From positions 1 to 39,561 of IMG/VR virus record IMGVR_UViG_3300046463_000374: 39,561 nt of DNA; one strand, written 5' to 3'. This DNA is from a virus. The position numbers and the translations under genes are program-made. The first letter of the stretch is position 1; every line of letters begins with the position of its first letter. Under the pieces are notes generated by a model that did not search any database, was not told the DNA's origin, and saw only the letters and a list, made by a program, of their open reading frames with translations. Below, one piece after another: positions 3,602 to 13,495 of the stretch.

Positions 3602-4402
3602 TTATGCTGCGAGTAAATCGTTCGGCGTCGCTTCTGTGATGCGCTTGTCTGCAATGGCGAAATAGCTTTCATCGCGCTCGATGCCGATGAAATTTCGACC
3701 GGTGCGCATGGCTGCGACGCCGGTTGTGCCGCTACCCATGCACGAGTCGAGCACCGTGTCGCCTTCGTTCGTGTACGTGCGGATTAGGTACTCCATCAGC
3801 GCGACGGGCTTTTGCGTGGGGTGAAAGGCGCCCGCGCCGACGTTGTGCTCGCTGGCGATCTTTATCACCGAGCGCGGATACCCCTCAAACTCCTGTCGAA
3901 TCGTCTTTTTGTGTGACGGACGAACGCTATAGAGCGCATCAGCCTCATCGCTCAACCGCTCGCCGCGAGACGGCCGGTAACTCTCTCTGTCAACGCGCAC
4001 AAGCCCTTGCGGGTTGTATGTCATGCGCGACTTGCTCTGAGATGCGTGAACCGTTGTTCCGCCTGAGAACACGCAAACATCCTCGTGCGATTTCATCGGC
4101 TTGTTCTTCGCGTGAACATGACCTGTAGCGCGCGTCTTTTCCCACACGAGGCAATACTTGAACATTTCCATGTTCGACGCGATCAGCGCCGTCGTGAACG
4201 GCTGACTGGCCGTAAGCACAATCGCCGCGCTCGGCTTTGCAATGCGCCGGTATTGCGTCCACAACGGCTCGAACGGAATCACCGAATCCCACTTGCAAGC
4301 CGTCGTGCCGTAGGGCAAATCGCACAGAATCAAATCAACGCTGTTATCGGCGAGCGTCGCCATCACGTCTAGGCAGTCGCCTAAGCGCAAATCCGCGTCC
4401 AT
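3602..4402 (-). CDS. DNA N6-adenine/N4-cytosine methyltransferase (beta class), copy 1
   Basis: A 266-residue SAM-dependent DNA methyltransferase of the N6_N4_Mtase family. Motif IV, written DLPYG (residues 28-32) in place of the usual DPPY, comes first. The SAM-binding motif follows near the C-terminus (HPTQKPVALMEYLI, then DSCMGSGTTGVAA), the beta-class order. I start at MDADLRLGDC (4402), whose ATG overlaps the portal stop as TAATG; the longer open frame upstream is Arg-rich and overlaps portal. No restriction partner is present, so it is probably a phage orphan enzyme protecting virion DNA or changing host methylation. It is a paralogue of the gene at 6002-6700. Confidence 0.88.
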   Translation of the reverse strand: MDADLRLGDCLDVMATLADNSVDLILCDLPYGTTACKWDSVIPFEPLWTQYRRIAKPSAAIVLTASQPFTTALIASNMEMFKYCLVWEKTRATGHVHAKNKPMKSHEDVCVFSGGTTVHASQSKSRMTYNPQGLVRVDRESYRPSRGERLSDEADALYSVRPSHKKTIRQEFEGYPRSVIKIASEHNVGAGAFHPTQKPVALMEYLIRTYTNEGDTVLDSCMGSGTTGVAAMRTGRNFIGIERDESYFAIADKRITEATPNDLLAA

Positions 4403-5880
4403 TAATTCCCCGTATTGTCCGGAATAGGTTTGATCGCCGTCGCCTTCGCAATTTCGGCCGCGTCCGCTTCTGCGGATTCGGCTTTGATGCGCGCGAGTTC
4501 GGCGGGCACGTCTTCGACGTCGTATTGCTCGGCGAGCGAGGTCGTCGCGGTTTCCTTCGAGAGCAAGCCGCCCGACGTCAGTGCGCCGAGCGTCGTCGCT
4601 TCGTTGGTCTTGTCGGCCCAGGTCGGCATATACCAATCCGGCCATTTCAGAACGAACGGCTTGTCGGTCGCGATGGCGGGAATCTTCTCGCCTTCGGAAT
4701 TGACAAGCGCGGCTTTCTGCGACGCCTTCGCGATCATGCGATAGAGTTGCAGCAAGCCTTTTTCGCCGTAGGAGATGCGCAGCTTGTCGGCGAGCCAGAT
4801 AAGCGCCTGATTCATCAACTCCATTGCGCGCCCTGACTGAGCCGCCGCGATCTTGTCGGCGTCCGCCTTGTTGCCGTGAATCGATTCGAGCGCAACCTGG
4901 CGCGCGAGCCGCACGTATTCGAGCAGCGCGTTCGTACCGTCACCGCTCATTTCGAGCAACTTCGCGTCGCCGTCCGCGCCGACCGTGATCGCGTTGCCGC
5001 CGCCCTTGACGAGCGTTCCGCCTTGACCTGTCGCCGGCTCTTTGATGAGCAACGTCGGGTCGCTGGCGTACTTCAGCGCGCGCCCGCCTTGCGAGAGCAG
5101 GTAATCGAGTTCGATGTTCGTGTCGATCGCTTTCGCGAACGTGCACTTTCCGTCGATTTCGTCGCCGCCGGGAAGGTTGCGAATCCAGACGATCGGCACG
5201 AAGCCGAGCGAGTGCGAGACAGAGCGGCCGGCATCGCGCGCCATCGTTTCAGGGTCGTTGCCCTTCGCGACCGGCATCGGGTCGAACCACGATTCGGCGC
5301 TCGCATCCCACTCGCGCCGGAACCAGAAGTCTTTCGCAAGGTCGTCGTCGCCGATCGGATAGCCGAGCGCCTTCAGCGCGCGACCCTTCGTTTTGTACAG
5401 TTCGACGACTTTCGCGAGCGTGTCGGGCGCGTCGGCTTGCCACACAGGCGTGAGGTATTGCGTGTTCAGCGCGTCGAAGAACAGCCGATTTTTCAGCACG
5501 CGCATCAGCACCGCGACCGAGCCGACCGAGCCGCGCGTCGCCGCGTCGATCATGGTCTCGTTCAGGTGGCAATCCTTCGCGATCGCTTCGAGCGCTTCAG
5601 CCGCGTCCGGGTTCTCGCTCGTCACCTTCGGAAAATGCTCTTCGGAGAACAGCAGGCCGACAGAATCATCGACGACCGCGGAGCAGAGCGCGTAAGGAAC
5701 AGACGGGCGGCGCTCGCGCAACTGGATATATTCTTGCGCGTCGTTCTTTTCCGTATGGAAAGGGTAGGGCAGAACGTCGTAAATCGTGCCGTCGAGAACA
5801 GCCGTCAAACAACCGACTGTGTGCGCTCGATCGGGCAAATCATTGTCCTTCGGGTGTCGGTCGCGGAGGGATTTCCACAT
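4402..5880 (-). CDS. Portal protein
   Basis: A 492-residue protein at the portal position, between large terminase and scaffold/capsid. Features typical of SPP1-gp6-like/phage portal proteins are a long helical stem region with LLEYVRLARQVALESIHGNK, the clip-like stretch before it (TLVKGGGNAITVGADGDAK), and an acidic, alanine-rich C-terminus (RIKAESAEADAAEIAKATA). The dodecameric ring would form the DNA channel at the capsid vertex and dock the terminase. Its ATG follows immediately after the stop of a 59-residue gene with no spacing and no good ribosome site, so translation is probably coupled. Its stop overlaps the methyltransferase start. Confidence 0.85.
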   Translation of the reverse strand: MWKSLRDRHPKDNDLPDRAHTVGCLTAVLDGTIYDVLPYPFHTEKNDAQEYIQLRERRPSVPYALCSAVVDDSVGLLFSEEHFPKVTSENPDAAEALEAIAKDCHLNETMIDAATRGSVGSVAVLMRVLKNRLFFDALNTQYLTPVWQADAPDTLAKVVELYKTKGRALKALGYPIGDDDLAKDFWFRREWDASAESWFDPMPVAKGNDPETMARDAGRSVSHSLGFVPIVWIRNLPGGDEIDGKCTFAKAIDTNIELDYLLSQGGRALKYASDPTLLIKEPATGQGGTLVKGGGNAITVGADGDAKLLEMSGDGTNALLEYVRLARQVALESIHGNKADADKIAAAQSGRAMELMNQALIWLADKLRISYGEKGLLQLYRMIAKASQKAALVNSEGEKIPAIATDKPFVLKWPDWYMPTWADKTNEATTLGALTSGGLLSKETATTSLAEQYDVEDVPAELARIKAESAEADAAEIAKATAIKPIPDNTGN

Positions 5881-6060
5881 TCAATGAATCCGGTATTGTG
5901 TGAGATGGGTCGAGCCGATCACGCCATCAGGAACGCGCGTCATGACTGCGGAAACCGTGTCGAAGCCCGTTTGCTCGAACACCGCCTCGAACAGCCGCAG
6001 CTCATGTTCCGGTTCGTAATGCTCCATTTGAAGCAAGGTCGAATAGGTCTTGATTTTCAT
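5881..6060 (-). CDS. Small uncharacterised protein between methyltransferase and portal (59 aa)
   Basis: An open frame of 59 residues beginning MKIKTYSTLLQMEHYEPEHE and ending THLTQYRIH. GAGG lies seven bases before its ATG. Its first 59 bases overlap the 3' end of the upstream methyltransferase gene in another frame, and its TGA directly abuts the portal ATG. That exact fit, filling the whole gap, supports it as a real gene. It is acidic, with no Cys pairs, signal or membrane segment. I do not recognise the family. A role in packaging or portal assembly is possible from position only. Confidence 0.6.
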   Translation of the reverse strand: MKIKTYSTLLQMEHYEPEHELRLFEAVFEQTGFDTVSAVMTRVPDGVIGSTHLTQYRIH

Positions 6061-6700
6061 GTGCCGCCTCGATGCGCTTGCGCGCGATGTCGAAATACGT
6101 TTCGTCGCGCTCGATGCCGATGAAATTGCGGCCGGTGTTGGCGCATGCGACGCCGGTTGTGCCGGAACCCATGCAGTTATCGAGCACCGTGTCGCCTTCG
6201 TTGGTTGAAGCCAGAATCAAGCGCTCCATTAGTCCGACAGGCTTTTGCGTGGGGTGCAATTTGGATCGACCGCTAGGCGCCTGCCATAGAGCTTTTTTGC
6301 AATGCTCATTGAATGTGGCATTGGGTCGGCGTGCGAACACGCAAAACTCCAAGCCGCTGACCCATAAGCGCGATCCATTCATCGGACTAGGATTCGTCTT
6401 TTCCCATGCGCCGACGCGCGTCGTCAGACCGTGAGCGCGGAAGGCCGCCACAAGCGGGCTGATTTGCTCAGTGCCGCAGAATGCATAAAAGGAGCCAGTG
6501 CAAAGCCGCACGAACTCGCTCACAACCGCCGTCAAATCCATTTCGCACCTGTCGGCCGTTCCGCGATCCAGCATCCTCAACCCGCTGCTCTTCTGCGAAA
6601 CCTCGCCGTAGGGCAAATCGCATAGGATCAGATCGACCGACGCCGGCGCGAGCGTTTCCATCACCTGAAGGCAATCGCCCAGGCGCAAATCATGAGTCAT
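6002..6700 (-). CDS. DNA N6-adenine/N4-cytosine methyltransferase (beta class), copy 2
   Basis: A 232-residue DNA methyltransferase with motif IV as DLPYG near residue 28 and the SAM site near residue 170 (HPTQKPVGLMERLI, then DNCMGSGTTGVAC). The C-terminal third is nearly the same as copy 1, while the central target-recognition part (residues 40-130) differs and is shorter. The two enzymes are therefore likely duplicates that diverged to different DNA targets. It lies directly downstream of large terminase, three bases from its stop. The last 59 bases overlap the next small gene. The missing first proline of DPPY is shared by both copies, so it is a family trait rather than damage. Confidence 0.87.
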   Translation of the reverse strand: MTHDLRLGDCLQVMETLAPASVDLILCDLPYGEVSQKSSGLRMLDRGTADRCEMDLTAVVSEFVRLCTGSFYAFCGTEQISPLVAAFRAHGLTTRVGAWEKTNPSPMNGSRLWVSGLEFCVFARRPNATFNEHCKKALWQAPSGRSKLHPTQKPVGLMERLILASTNEGDTVLDNCMGSGTTGVACANTGRNFIGIERDETYFDIARKRIEAAHENQDLFDLASNGALRTGT

Positions 6701-8063: not shown

Positions 8064-8618
8064 TCAGAGAATCGGCTTTTCGGGAATCGGCTCGTCGGGC
8101 GAGATGAATGTGTCTGTCGCCGTCATTCCGCCGTCGTCGCCGCCCCCGCCCGCCTCGCGCTCGATCTTAAGCAGTTCGGCGCGCGTGCGCTCTAGCGATT
8201 CCACGCGCCGCGCGATGCGCTCGACGTGCTCGCCGTAATCGACGCGCTTGCGCACCGTTTCATCGCCTGGGCCGAACTCTGACGCCTCGCGATCGTGACG
8301 CTGCACGACTTCGAGGCCGTCTTTGTCGCTCTCGAACGCCTTCGCCTCTGCATCTAGCGCGCGGCGCATGCGGAACCGCAGCAGCGTGATTTCCGCGTCA
8401 AGCGTGCCGATGCGCGCCGTCACCGCGTCGAAGTCGCCTTTTTCCTCGTCGGTCAGGAACTTCCCGTAAATGCCATGCTTCGTGGCGTGCTGGTTCTGCT
8501 TGGGCGCCCCGTCCGATGCGCCGCCGTGAATGCGGCAGACGGTTTTACCGGGGACCGCCTTCGCTTGGCACTGCGCGCCAGTGGAGCGCGCGAACGCCTT
8601 GCATTGCGCGCGCTTCAT
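8064..8618 (-). CDS. terS: Terminase small subunit
   Basis: A 184-residue protein directly upstream of terL. I start at MKRAQCKAFAR (8618) because AGGAG sits seven bases ahead; an ATG six codons earlier has only a weak site. The N-terminus has a Cys/His cluster (CKAFARSTGAQCQAKAV, CRIHGGA) seen in a set of phage small terminases, which probably binds zinc. The middle is a long coiled coil (residues 60-165), suited to ring formation. The tail is acidic and would contact the large subunit. It should recognise the packaging start site. It is the first gene of the leftward late block, divergent from the plus-strand accessory genes. Confidence 0.82.
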   Translation of the reverse strand: MKRAQCKAFARSTGAQCQAKAVPGKTVCRIHGGASDGAPKQNQHATKHGIYGKFLTDEEKGDFDAVTARIGTLDAEITLLRFRMRRALDAEAKAFESDKDGLEVVQRHDREASEFGPGDETVRKRVDYGEHVERIARRVESLERTRAELLKIEREAGGGGDDGGMTATDTFISPDEPIPEKPIL

Positions 8619-11840: not shown

Positions 11841-12016
11841 GCGCGCCTCGCAAGATATTTCTTCGCCGCCCACTGCGCGACCTCGCAAAACACGGTCACA
11901 GCTACGCAGATACCAGAGACGATCGCATCAACCTTGCTTCCGCGCTTAAGAGCGTCGAGAAACGTAATGGTGACGGCGCCGAAAACGAACCAGTGACACT
12001 TGTCCGAAAGTTTCAC
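11837..12016 (-). CDS. Small membrane protein (59 aa)
   Basis: A GTG-start frame (12016) that overlaps the previous TGA, reading VKLSDKCHWFVFGAVTITFL and ending KKYLARRA; its stop overlaps the next ATG. There are hydrophobic stretches at residues 8-20 and 32-47, and a basic C-terminus, so probably one or two membrane passes with the basic end inside. The joints on both sides make it convincing despite its size. No family is recognised. Confidence 0.55.
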   Translation of the reverse strand: MKLSDKCHWFVFGAVTITFLDALKRGSKVDAIVSGICVAVTVFCEVAQWAAKKYLARRA

Positions 12017-12297
12017 CCAAACCTCGCAATGCGCATCCCGAGAATGTGCGCGTAGTCCCGCATGTGGCTCAACTGAACGCCGAGCAAGTGACGGTCGATG
12101 TCGCCCAGGTCGCGATATGCGCCGCTTCCGAAGAAATCGCAGAGCTTGTCGAGCCGCGCGTCGAGTTCGGCTTTCTCGTCGATTACGCGCTGTTGCCAGT
12201 CAGGACGGCACGCGCCGCACATCGAGCGCTCGGCACTCATGCAACGCGGTTCGCTCGTCGTGTCGACCAACATCGAGAACCCGGATTCGTCCATCAT
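12013..12297 (-). CDS. Phage protein with conserved VIDEKAELD C-terminal domain (94 aa)
   Basis: Start is at MMDESGFSML (12297), with GGAGA six bases upstream. The first 30 residues contain four Cys (CMSAERSMCGAC) that could bind metal. The remainder (RVIDEKAELDARLDKLCDFF, then LSHMRDYAHILGMRIARFG) is a two-helix hairpin that I recognise as a recurrent small phage domain of unknown function. It is the first gene of the minus-strand group and lies back to back with the gene at 12400 across regulatory cassette copy 2, an arrangement repeated at the two other cassettes. Confidence 0.68.
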   Translation of the reverse strand: MMDESGFSMLVDTTSEPRCMSAERSMCGACRPDWQQRVIDEKAELDARLDKLCDFFGSGAYRDLGDIDRHLLGVQLSHMRDYAHILGMRIARFG

Positions 12298-12308
12298 CTC
12301 TTTCTCCG

Positions 12309-12354
12309 AACAGCGAAAATAGTTGTTGACTGTTAAATCTCGCGCGAATATGAT
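12309..12354 (+). promoter_or_regulatory. Regulatory cassette copy 2: promoter plus upstream element
   Basis: The 26-base element (12309-12334) is identical to copy 1. It carries -35 TTGACT (12326-12331), then a 17-base spacer and TATGAT (12349-12354). The leader again has a GCGCT/AGCGC hairpin and CTACCGGAGAGA before the ATG at 12400. Confidence 0.7.
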
Positions 12355-12399
12355 TCGTCCATGCGCTGACAGAAGCGCACCTACCGGAGAGAATAAAAA

Positions 12400-12678
12400 A
12401 TGAACCAGACCTTTGCTCAATACATCGCCCGCACCATTGAAGGCGCGACCGCCGCCGCCGAATTCGCGCACCTGTCGGCTCGACTCGACTTCGACTCAAA
12501 CGCGGAGCGCGCGATGAAGCTGCTCGCGGGCGGAACGAAGAGTGATGGATACCTTCACGGCTTTTCTAAGCTCATGGCGCGTATCACAAAGCGGGGCGAG
12601 GGCATCGAATCGGCTCTAGACTCGGTAATTTCCGAGTTTCGGGAGGCGCTCGAAGTTGCCGAGGCCGACGCGGAATGA
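12400..12678 (+). CDS. Hypothetical protein (92 aa)
   Basis: A 92-residue mostly helical protein (MNQTFAQYIARTIEGATAAA to VAEADAE) with a strong ribosome site CTACCGGAGAGA. It is expressed from regulatory cassette copy 2 and followed by an intrinsic terminator, so it forms its own transcription unit. The C-terminal half is acidic. No family, signal or membrane segment is recognised. Its leader contains the sequence complementary to the predicted small RNA at 15.0 kb, so it may be under that RNA's control (inference). Confidence 0.7.
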   Translation: MNQTFAQYIARTIEGATAAAEFAHLSARLDFDSNAERAMKLLAGGTKSDGYLHGFSKLMARITKRGEGIESALDSVISEFREALEVAEADAE

Positions 12679-12705: not shown

Positions 12706-13330
12706 ATTGGTTGAGAGCGGCGGGGTTTCGCTCAATGGCTGTCTTACGCGCGATAGTCCGTCGCGCTGCCCGCTGTCGGCTTTGACATGCCCTAGCTCTC
12801 ACGGCTGGCGAATCGGACGCGCCATCACTGAAGTTCGCGCCGTTATGCGTTGAAACGACTCCGTTTCGCCATGCGTGAGAGGCCCGGTTACGTTGTCCGG
12901 GGTCGCTTAGGTGATCGCGACCGTGACCGACTTACTTCCGCTTCGCAGGGGTGTGTAGAGAGTCGGTTTCTGCCCATCGAGCGAACCGGCATGCGCGGGT
13001 TCGTTGTATGGCCGACCCTCACGACTGGGGACTCAATCCCGATACTTCGCCGCATCCATGGGGATCGGGTTCCACGTTTTGGAGTCGCCATGCGCGAGAG
13101 TGCCGGTTACAGCGCGGTTCCGGCGCCGGCGTCCCGGCTGACACACTGGTGCGCTAAACATCGCCGCTGCCTTTCGGCTACTACGGCAAGCGTTGTGCCG
13201 CGACTTGGTGAGCAGGTAGGGAAGGGAACGCAGAGCGGCGCGCGACCTTATCGCCACGTTCGCCGGACGTCGAAACAATCCGGTGTAGGCGGAACGATCA
13301 AGCCGTCACTCGCGCATTCACGCGCCGCGC
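12705..13330. other. Gene-free, highly structured region with two copies of a long helix; candidate non-coding RNA
   Basis: No frame here has ribosome sites or protein-like composition. Pairing is dense. CTCTCACG-GCT-GGCGAA (12796-12812) pairs with TTCGCC-ATG-CGTGAGAG (12865-12881), giving 14 pairs around a three-by-three internal loop. A related pair is CTCACGACTGGGGACTC (13018-13034) with 13082-13098, 13 of 17 paired. The right arms belong to a 25-base repeat (12867-12891 and 13086-13110, 22 of 25 identical). Other stems are GGTCGC/GCGACC (12901/12917), GAACC/GGTTC inside GTCGG/CCGAC (12962/13012), and CCCGAT/ATCGGG (13038/13064). Strand is undecided. A decayed gene is the alternative. Confidence 0.5.
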
Positions 13331-13345
13331 CCCTTCCCATGATCG

Positions 13346-13495
13346 TTATCGCAGGAACTTCACAATCGGCAGCACGACGATCGATAGCACGCCAACCGCG
13401 CCAGCGACCCAGGCAGTGCCGAGCGCAAGGCCGATCGCAAGCTCTTTCGCGTGATGCAGCACGGCCGACGTGCGGCGAATTCGAATGGCCTTCAT
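13346..13495 (-). CDS. Small membrane protein (49 aa)
   Basis: A 49-residue frame MKAIRIRRTSAVLHHAKELA to IVVLPIVKFLR whose ATG overlaps the preceding TGA. The N-terminus is basic. A long hydrophobic segment (about residues 20-46, IGLALGTAWVAGAVGVLSIV) is followed by KFLR, so a single membrane pass with positive charges on both sides. It is coupled to the gene at 13492-13866. No family is recognised; it is another member of this phage's set of coupled small membrane proteins. Confidence 0.6.
   Translation of the reverse strand: MKAIRIRRTSAVLHHAKELAIGLALGTAWVAGAVGVLSIVVLPIVKFLR

What the first reader, a model, noticed from the sequence alone, without database searches (positions are those of the whole stretch)
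12796..13110. Two copies of a long helix in a gene-free 620-bp region: candidate large non-coding RNA
CTCTCACG-GCT-GGCGAA at 12796 pairs with 12865-12881, and the related arm at 13018 pairs with 13082-13098. The right arms share a 25-base repeat, but the inner part of the helix differs between copies (GGCGAA/TTCGCC versus GACTC/GAGTC) while remaining paired. More stems lie between and after. Protein-coding character is absent. Several large phage or prophage RNAs (for example GOLLD, ROOL) have comparable size and density, but I do not recognise this as one of them.
Basis: partly seen in the sequence, partly recalled or inferred. Interest (0 to 1): 0.72.

Follow-up and report, generated by a model that had tools for sequence, protein, structure and literature searches.

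The report
Phage RNA with exchangeable hairpin cargo
Two copies of a folded, non-coding RNA unit sit at the head of this phage's late genes, and they belong to an apparently undescribed RNA family found in many phages, in which conserved stems carry interchangeable inserts and the far end imitates a transfer RNA.

Summary
Both helices exist, and a covariance model built from viral relatives finds both copies on the MINUS strand: 12791-12886 (E 3e-16, a training sequence) and 13011-13105 (E 9e-13, not in training). The outer and inner stems covary strongly across 54 relatives. G-U wobbles favour the minus strand, so this is RNA, not a DNA site or a gene. Minus is the late-gene strand here.

The hairpin is one part of a larger modular phage RNA: small hairpin P1, arm X'1, hairpin with variable cargo, arm X, a 3' domain, arm X'3. 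The middle arm X is complementary to both X'1 and X'3, and covaries with both. In most relatives the 3' domain is tRNA-like: a 7-9 bp acceptor-like stem, two hairpins with complementary loops, and often N-CCA. Cargo and flanks are exchanged independently; the window's own second copy shows it.

Relatives lie at heads of late operons, by repressors or in tRNA clusters, are usually unannotated, and match no Rfam family. A related 138-nt element is in 840 of 5426 E. coli genomes. Structure is well supported. The proposed mechanism (a bistable leader that yields a processed tRNA-like RNA) is inferred. No transcript was seen.

The parts
13102..13124 (-). P1 hairpin of unit 1 (GCCGG...CCGGC)
   Evidence: coordinates; the same kind of small hairpin precedes many relatives (seen)
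13011..13105 (-). type A hairpin, unit 1 (arms X'1 13093-13100 and X 13015-13023, cargo between)
   Evidence: cmsearch R1 E 9.2e-13, not in training; filters off 45.6 bits on minus versus 3.9 on plus
12955..12963 (-). candidate arm X'3 of unit 1 (ACTCTCTAC)
   Evidence: homologous position in L081 reads ACTCTCAC, 8 pairs with its X
12983..13002 (-). hairpin inside the 3' domain of unit 1 (GAACC...GGTTC)
   Evidence: sequence; not tested by covariation
12883..12901 (-). P1 hairpin of unit 2 (CCCGG...CCGGG)
12791..12886 (-). type A hairpin, unit 2 (arms X'1 12872-12881 and X 12795-12804, cargo between)
   Evidence: cmsearch R1 E 3.1e-16, training sequence; pair counts; 56.3 bits minus versus 13.4 plus
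12708..12801 (-). divergent 3' domain of unit 2: 7-bp stem TGAGAGC (12801-12795) with GCTCTCA (12718-12712), then A-CCA (12711-12708)
   Evidence: sequence; lacks the canonical type C core; the ACCA is not kept in the 97% identical L005
12683..12700 (.). terminator-like hairpin between the RNA and the opposing plus-strand ORF 12400-12678
   Evidence: strong T tail on plus, weak on minus
13346..13495 (-). 49-codon ORF (hydrophobic) just 5' of the RNA on the same strand
   Evidence: a similar short ORF was read by eye in L005

Best explanation
SHOWN by comparison: a non-coding RNA locus on the minus strand at the head of the late operon, with two tandem units P1 - X'1 - [type A hairpin with exchangeable cargo] - X - [3' domain] - X'3, in a phage RNA family outside Rfam. 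X is complementary to both X'1 and X'3. INFERRED: the two pairings are alternatives. As the RNA emerges, X'1:X forms the long type A hairpin. When X'3 appears, X can switch partner and close a tRNA-like domain (type C): acceptor-like stem stacked on a T-arm-like hairpin, with the two hairpin loops kissing. That form would look like a precursor tRNA to RNase P and the CCA enzyme, which would cut before X and free a stable tRNA-like RNA, often just before a terminator. The cargo is the fast-evolving part, exchanged between phages by recombination in the conserved stems. Late-expressed tRNA-like RNAs with changing cargo most plausibly engage host tRNA or RNA factors, for instance as decoys. For this window the 3' domain is a divergent version, so the switch is least certain here.
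For: Covariation: 93.1% of cells paired, 122 double changes versus 40.9 in shuffles, score 0.372 versus 0.144, 0/500. Strand: 123 G-U versus 30 A-C cells on minus in 80 non-redundant sites. Shared arm: in 31 composite units X pairs 5.77/6 with X'1 and 5.81/6 with X'3; shuffle maxima 5.06 and 5.00. Same stem within a phage: right arms agree at 5.17/6 positions within a locus versus 3.53 between, 0/5000 permutations. Kissing loops: with both loops left free, 82 of 99 keep 6 complementary bases; compensated variants in L037, L092, L098. N-CCA exactly after the stem in 29 of 188 versus 4.3 per background position. T-arm motif in cargo 5/83 and 7/110, opposite strand 0. Cargo exchange. Terminator within 130 nt in 44/182 versus 7/182. 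Late-operon site.
Against: No transcript, processing site or phenotype was examined. Predicted energies favour the type A form by a median 3.3 kcal/mol in 45 units, kissing not counted, range -4.1 to +14.2. Most type C elements lack an encoded CCA, and their T-like loop is 9 nt without TTCRA; ARAGORN calls no tRNA in the window. Rfam scanned permissively on one type C element gave no tRNA match. tRNA neighbours are a minority (8/77 and 10/105). No promoter is enriched directly before X. The window lacks the canonical type C core.
Confidence: 0.45

Rival explanations
1. Antisense or attenuation control like phage P4 immunity: X, made as a stable RNA, pairs in trans with X' arms of nascent leaders and provokes transcription termination, giving immunity or timing.
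For: Same topology as recalled for P4 (seqB complementary to seqA and seqC); terminators enriched just 3' of the element; some elements follow repressor genes (mEp460; repressor families lead the upstream list, phrog_4 in 14 of 93); HK620 element lies between pR' and tQ. Different stem in different phages would give phage-specific immunity.
Against: No Rfam C4 match in scanned relatives although C4 is found in P4; R1 finds nothing in P4. X is held in tRNA-like or hairpin stems in cis.
Confidence: 0.2
2. tRNA-like decoys against host defence: cargo and 3' domain mimic tRNAs and occupy tRNA-cutting or RNA-sensing defence proteins; cargo turns over in an arms race.
For: tRNA-like cargo on one strand only and a whole tRNA in L250; N-CCA; cargo exchange; some in tRNA clusters.
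Against: Only a minority of cargos carry a T-arm; no defence linkage was tested.
Confidence: 0.15
3. GOLLD/ROOL-like assembly: repeated X and X' arms pair between molecules and build an RNA particle.
For: Phage RNAs near tRNA islands with tRNAs in a linker (PMC12286853, passages); arms of different units in one phage pair as well (5.35/6) as own arms (5.40).
Against: No Rfam match; no fixed ornate core; short units.
Confidence: 0.1
4. Cis-acting antiterminator like HK022 put RNA, which modifies RNA polymerase.
For: Leader positions of late and repressor-side operons.
Against: put is about 70 nt with two stem-loops (PMC9378689, passages); neither R1 nor type C patterns occur in 16.8 kb of HK022.
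Confidence: 0.07
5. DNA-level site: recombination or transposition hairpin (attC-like).
For: Imperfect inverted repeats, modular exchange at the arms.
Against: G-U wobbles on one strand only, arms not of a fixed sequence, T-arms and terminators on the same strand.
Confidence: 0.02

Closest known systems
GOLLD and ROOL RNAs
   Same: phage and prophage RNAs without known function, near tRNA islands, tRNAs inside a GOLLD linker (PMC12286853, passages seen)
   Different: no Rfam match; a tandem array of modular units with a shared stem and exchangeable cargo rather than a large fixed fold
P4 CI RNA / C4 antisense RNA (RF01695)
   Same: an internal segment complementary to one arm upstream and one downstream in a phage leader (P4 scheme recalled)
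   Different: no sequence or model match either way; tRNA-like 3' domain; cargo
tRNA and tRNA-like structures (Y RNA-like, plant virus TLS; recalled)
   Same: 7-9 bp acceptor-like stem, two hairpins with interacting loops, N-CCA in a subset
   Different: 9-nt T-like loop without TTCRA, 6-bp kissing, variable insert of 25-161 nt, no anticodon arm required
HK022 put antiterminator RNA
   Same: phage leader RNA, hairpins
   Different: no match in HK022; different size and fold

Membership tests
GOLLD / ROOL | match to the Rfam covariance model | tested here: not met
   no match in the window or in scanned relatives at gathering score
GOLLD / ROOL | phage-borne, near tRNA islands | tested here: inconclusive
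   tRNA within 1 kb on the same strand in 8/77 and 10/105, expected 3.4 and 3.3; none in the window
GOLLD / ROOL | forms an RNA-only cage | not testable with these tools
   needs cryo-EM
C4 / P4 CI antisense RNA | match to Rfam C4 | tested here: not met
   C4 matches P4 at 8420-8507 but no element here
C4 / P4 CI antisense RNA | segment complementary to both an upstream and a downstream arm | tested here: met
   31 composite relatives; weaker in the window (7-bp X'3 in unit 2)
tRNA | cloverleaf accepted by ARAGORN or Rfam tRNA | tested here: not met
   one type C element scanned permissively gave no tRNA
tRNA-like structure | about 7-bp acceptor stem stacked on a T-arm, interacting loops, NCCA end | tested here: inconclusive
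   stem of 7-9 bp in 159 of 188, kissing in 82 of 99, N-CCA in 29 of 188; aminoacylation and RNase P not tested
HK022 put RNA | same element present in HK022 | tested here: not met
   (16.8 kb of HK022 searched)
attC / DNA hairpin site | fixed arm consensus, no strand preference of wobbles | tested here: not met
   arms vary with compensation; 123 G-U versus 30 A-C
protein-coding gene | conserved protein across the region | tested here: not met
   no PHROGs or Pfam family; cargo replaced wholesale between relatives

The most novel reading that the evidence does not exclude
A phage-wide RNA platform in Proteobacteria: conserved stems and a tRNA-mimicking end form a bistable leader that switches between a cargo hairpin and a processable tRNA-like RNA, while RNA 'cassettes' are swapped between phages much as protein morons are. 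It would be an RNA counterpart of modular accessory loci, used for immunity or counter-defence.
Probability: 0.3. Interest if true: 0.95.

Novelty: categorically new. Interest (0 to 1): 0.84.

Why it matters
If right, a highly structured RNA present in many phages, and in at least one variant in 840 of 5426 complete E. coli genomes without annotation in the rows listed, has gone unnamed. It has testable anatomy (a stem that must choose partners, loops that must kiss, an RNase P site) and exchangeable RNA cargo, which would be a new way for phages to vary non-coding functions.

Tried and rejected
Finding relatives through the 92-aa plus-strand protein gave none. blastn of the region against phages and plasmids gave only terminator matches or nothing. 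A near search with L010 (probably phage Bcep22, by size and record only) found nothing. A promoter directly before X looked likely from a few cases but was not enriched, 4 versus 3.8, and was dropped. HK022 put and P4 CI/C4 were considered and not matched. Rfam at E up to 5 or 10 gave only chance-level rows. My first translation of the short ORF used a wrong frame; one search corrects it.

Rows dropped: searches left out nine pattern hits judged by eye to be chance hits in coding DNA (L016, L019, L031, L032, L064, L066, L087, L114, L117). One search left out none beforehand, and then set aside five with fewer than 4 of 6 outer pairs; its 80 still hold L064 and L066. Alignment A1 uses 54 of those 80, my choice: L064, L066 and 24 others, many with long or odd cargo, were left out. 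Neighbour lists: A2 65 of 66, A3 73 of 93, A4 93 of 162. The 20 multi-unit loci were picked. Proteins in A2-A4 are unrelated and were aligned only to be scanned together.

Full report
What was checked. Folding energy gives only modest support, so the case was built on relatives. The window is an IMG/VR virus record.

Relatives. The 26-base repeat, written as a pattern, found three IMG/VR contigs; the replication protein found three more, of which L005 and L006 carry related hairpins at the same place. In all, the core reads, on the minus strand, CG-CA-TGGCG ... CGCCA-GY-CG inside an outer stem of varying sequence. A slightly tighter pattern hit only 34 stretches in the much larger collection of bacterial genomes. 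Positions the pattern leaves free decide what is real: of 101 distinct viral sites, 96 pair at 4 or more of the next 6 positions and 83 at 5 or 6; of 35 genome sites only 8 pair at 5 or 6, and those are in Burkholderiales or an unnamed proteobacterial MAG.

RNA, minus strand. In 80 non-redundant viral sites the outer pairs (seven positions, the seventh weakly) and four inner pairs exceed shuffled partners, with G-U 123 and A-C 30 over the first eleven of these when read on the minus strand. On 54 aligned sequences 11 of 19 pairs show double changes (8 are fixed by the pattern), 122 such cells against 40.9 in shuffles, and sliding the partner by 1-3 columns destroys the signal. Model R1 finds both window copies on minus; the opposite strand scores far lower.

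A larger unit. Just 3' of many type A hairpins lies GAATGCGCAGGCTGATGCGC. This 20-mer occurs exactly in Pseudomonas, Klebsiella and Escherichia phages, and its 19-base core in at least 120 IMG/VR stretches. It opens a second element, type C, closed by GCCGGAGATCAGCACCGGC and the complement of X. Among 100 loci chosen through type C, R1 finds 12 type A hairpins in 8 loci, including Burkholderia phage CSP3. The 3' arm of A is the 5' arm of C. In 31 composites X pairs with both X'1 and X'3. Units of one phage share the stem, those of different phages mostly do not. E. coli phages such as HK620 have another hairpin, which I call type B, in the place of A: by a loose signature 37 of 209 distinct type C elements carry B, 46 A, 1 the small hairpin alone, 125 none of these.

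Type C looks like a tRNA. The outer stem is 7-9 bp in 159 of 188 distinct elements, and N-CCA follows at the exact tRNA position in 29, against 4.3 per position elsewhere. The two hairpin loops are complementary: with both loops left free, 82 of 99 keep 6 bases and 12 keep 5, while shuffled loops reach 6 or more in 23 of 1980. Compensated loop changes occur in L037, L092, L098 and in two more. Cargos contain T-arm motifs only on the RNA strand (12 of 193, opposite 0), and L250 holds a complete tRNA between the two hairpins.

Cargo exchange. Among 101 type A elements, 6 pairs have like cargo in unlike flanks and 21 the reverse, against 11 pairs alike in both. The window's copy at 13011-13105 has flanks 98% and 95% identical to L081, with a cargo no more alike than background (57%; median 55%), while that cargo is 89% identical to the one in L053, in unrelated flanks.

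Place. On the window's minus strand lie terminase, portal, head and tail genes; on plus the replication and Erf genes. The RNA is therefore at the head of the late operon. Terminase families lead the genes downstream of type A relatives (phrog_2 in 12 of 65). HK620 and HK633 have their element between pR' and the holin gene, D3 in its tRNA cluster, mEp460 just after the repressor gene. Terminators follow type C in 44 of 182 against 7 of 182 in a control window. By established lambda biology (recalled), a pR' leader is transcribed even in the lysogen, so the RNA may be made before induction.

Spread. R1 matches 3 of 65 genomes of the Burkholderia relative's genus and the 19-mer 5 of 398 Pseudomonadota genomes, as expected of prophages. 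One 138-base type C variant is in 840 of 5426 E. coli genomes; in the 12 listed rows no feature is annotated under it.

Known or not. No Rfam family matches the element in the window or in the relatives scanned, where only tRNAs, isrK, isrJ and an IS1222 element elsewhere appeared. The paper library gave no use of the 20-mer and nothing that describes such an element in the listings read; most subscription papers are not held, so novelty in print is not settled. The Pas sRNA preprint (PMC13192938, abstract and two sections) describes other prophage RNAs.

Mechanism. Shown: RNA structure, strand, shared arm, kissing loops, partial tRNA likeness, cargo exchange, place. Inferred: alternative folding in time, RNase P cleavage, stable product, target. 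Constrained folds make the two forms close in many units (median 3.3 kcal/mol in favour of A without the kissing energy), which permits a switch but does not prove it. In the window, unit 2 ends in a 7-bp X:X'3 stem followed by ACCA, but its 3' domain lacks the canonical core, and L005, 97% identical there, lacks the ACCA.

Noticed in passing
window 12326-12678 (+): A small plus-strand ORF with its own promoter-like site and terminator opposes the late operon; L005 has a different gene behind the same promoter sequence at the same place, as in a moron slot.
   Followed up: partly
window 3602-4645 and 6002-6700 (-): Two DNA methyltransferase-like ORFs lie among the head and packaging genes on the late strand.
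   Followed up: no
L161 1741-1892 (HK620): The 5' part of the HK620 leader region (query about 22-173) matches hundreds of phages including Felixounavirus and other large phages; probably a further RNA module.
   Followed up: partly
L155 260-1020: Caballeronia prophage piece with three type A units and a tRNA-like unit whose acceptor stem is the shared arm and whose anticodon arm seems to end in a GAAA tetraloop.
   Followed up: partly
L008, L069, L106, L046, L094 cargos: A recurring cargo type with GCGG-GTAAA-GACC-GGCC elements appears in different scaffolds; likely a defined sub-structure.
   Followed up: no
window 12013-12300 (-): ORF with a crAss001_48-related domain directly downstream of the RNA on the same strand.
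   Followed up: no
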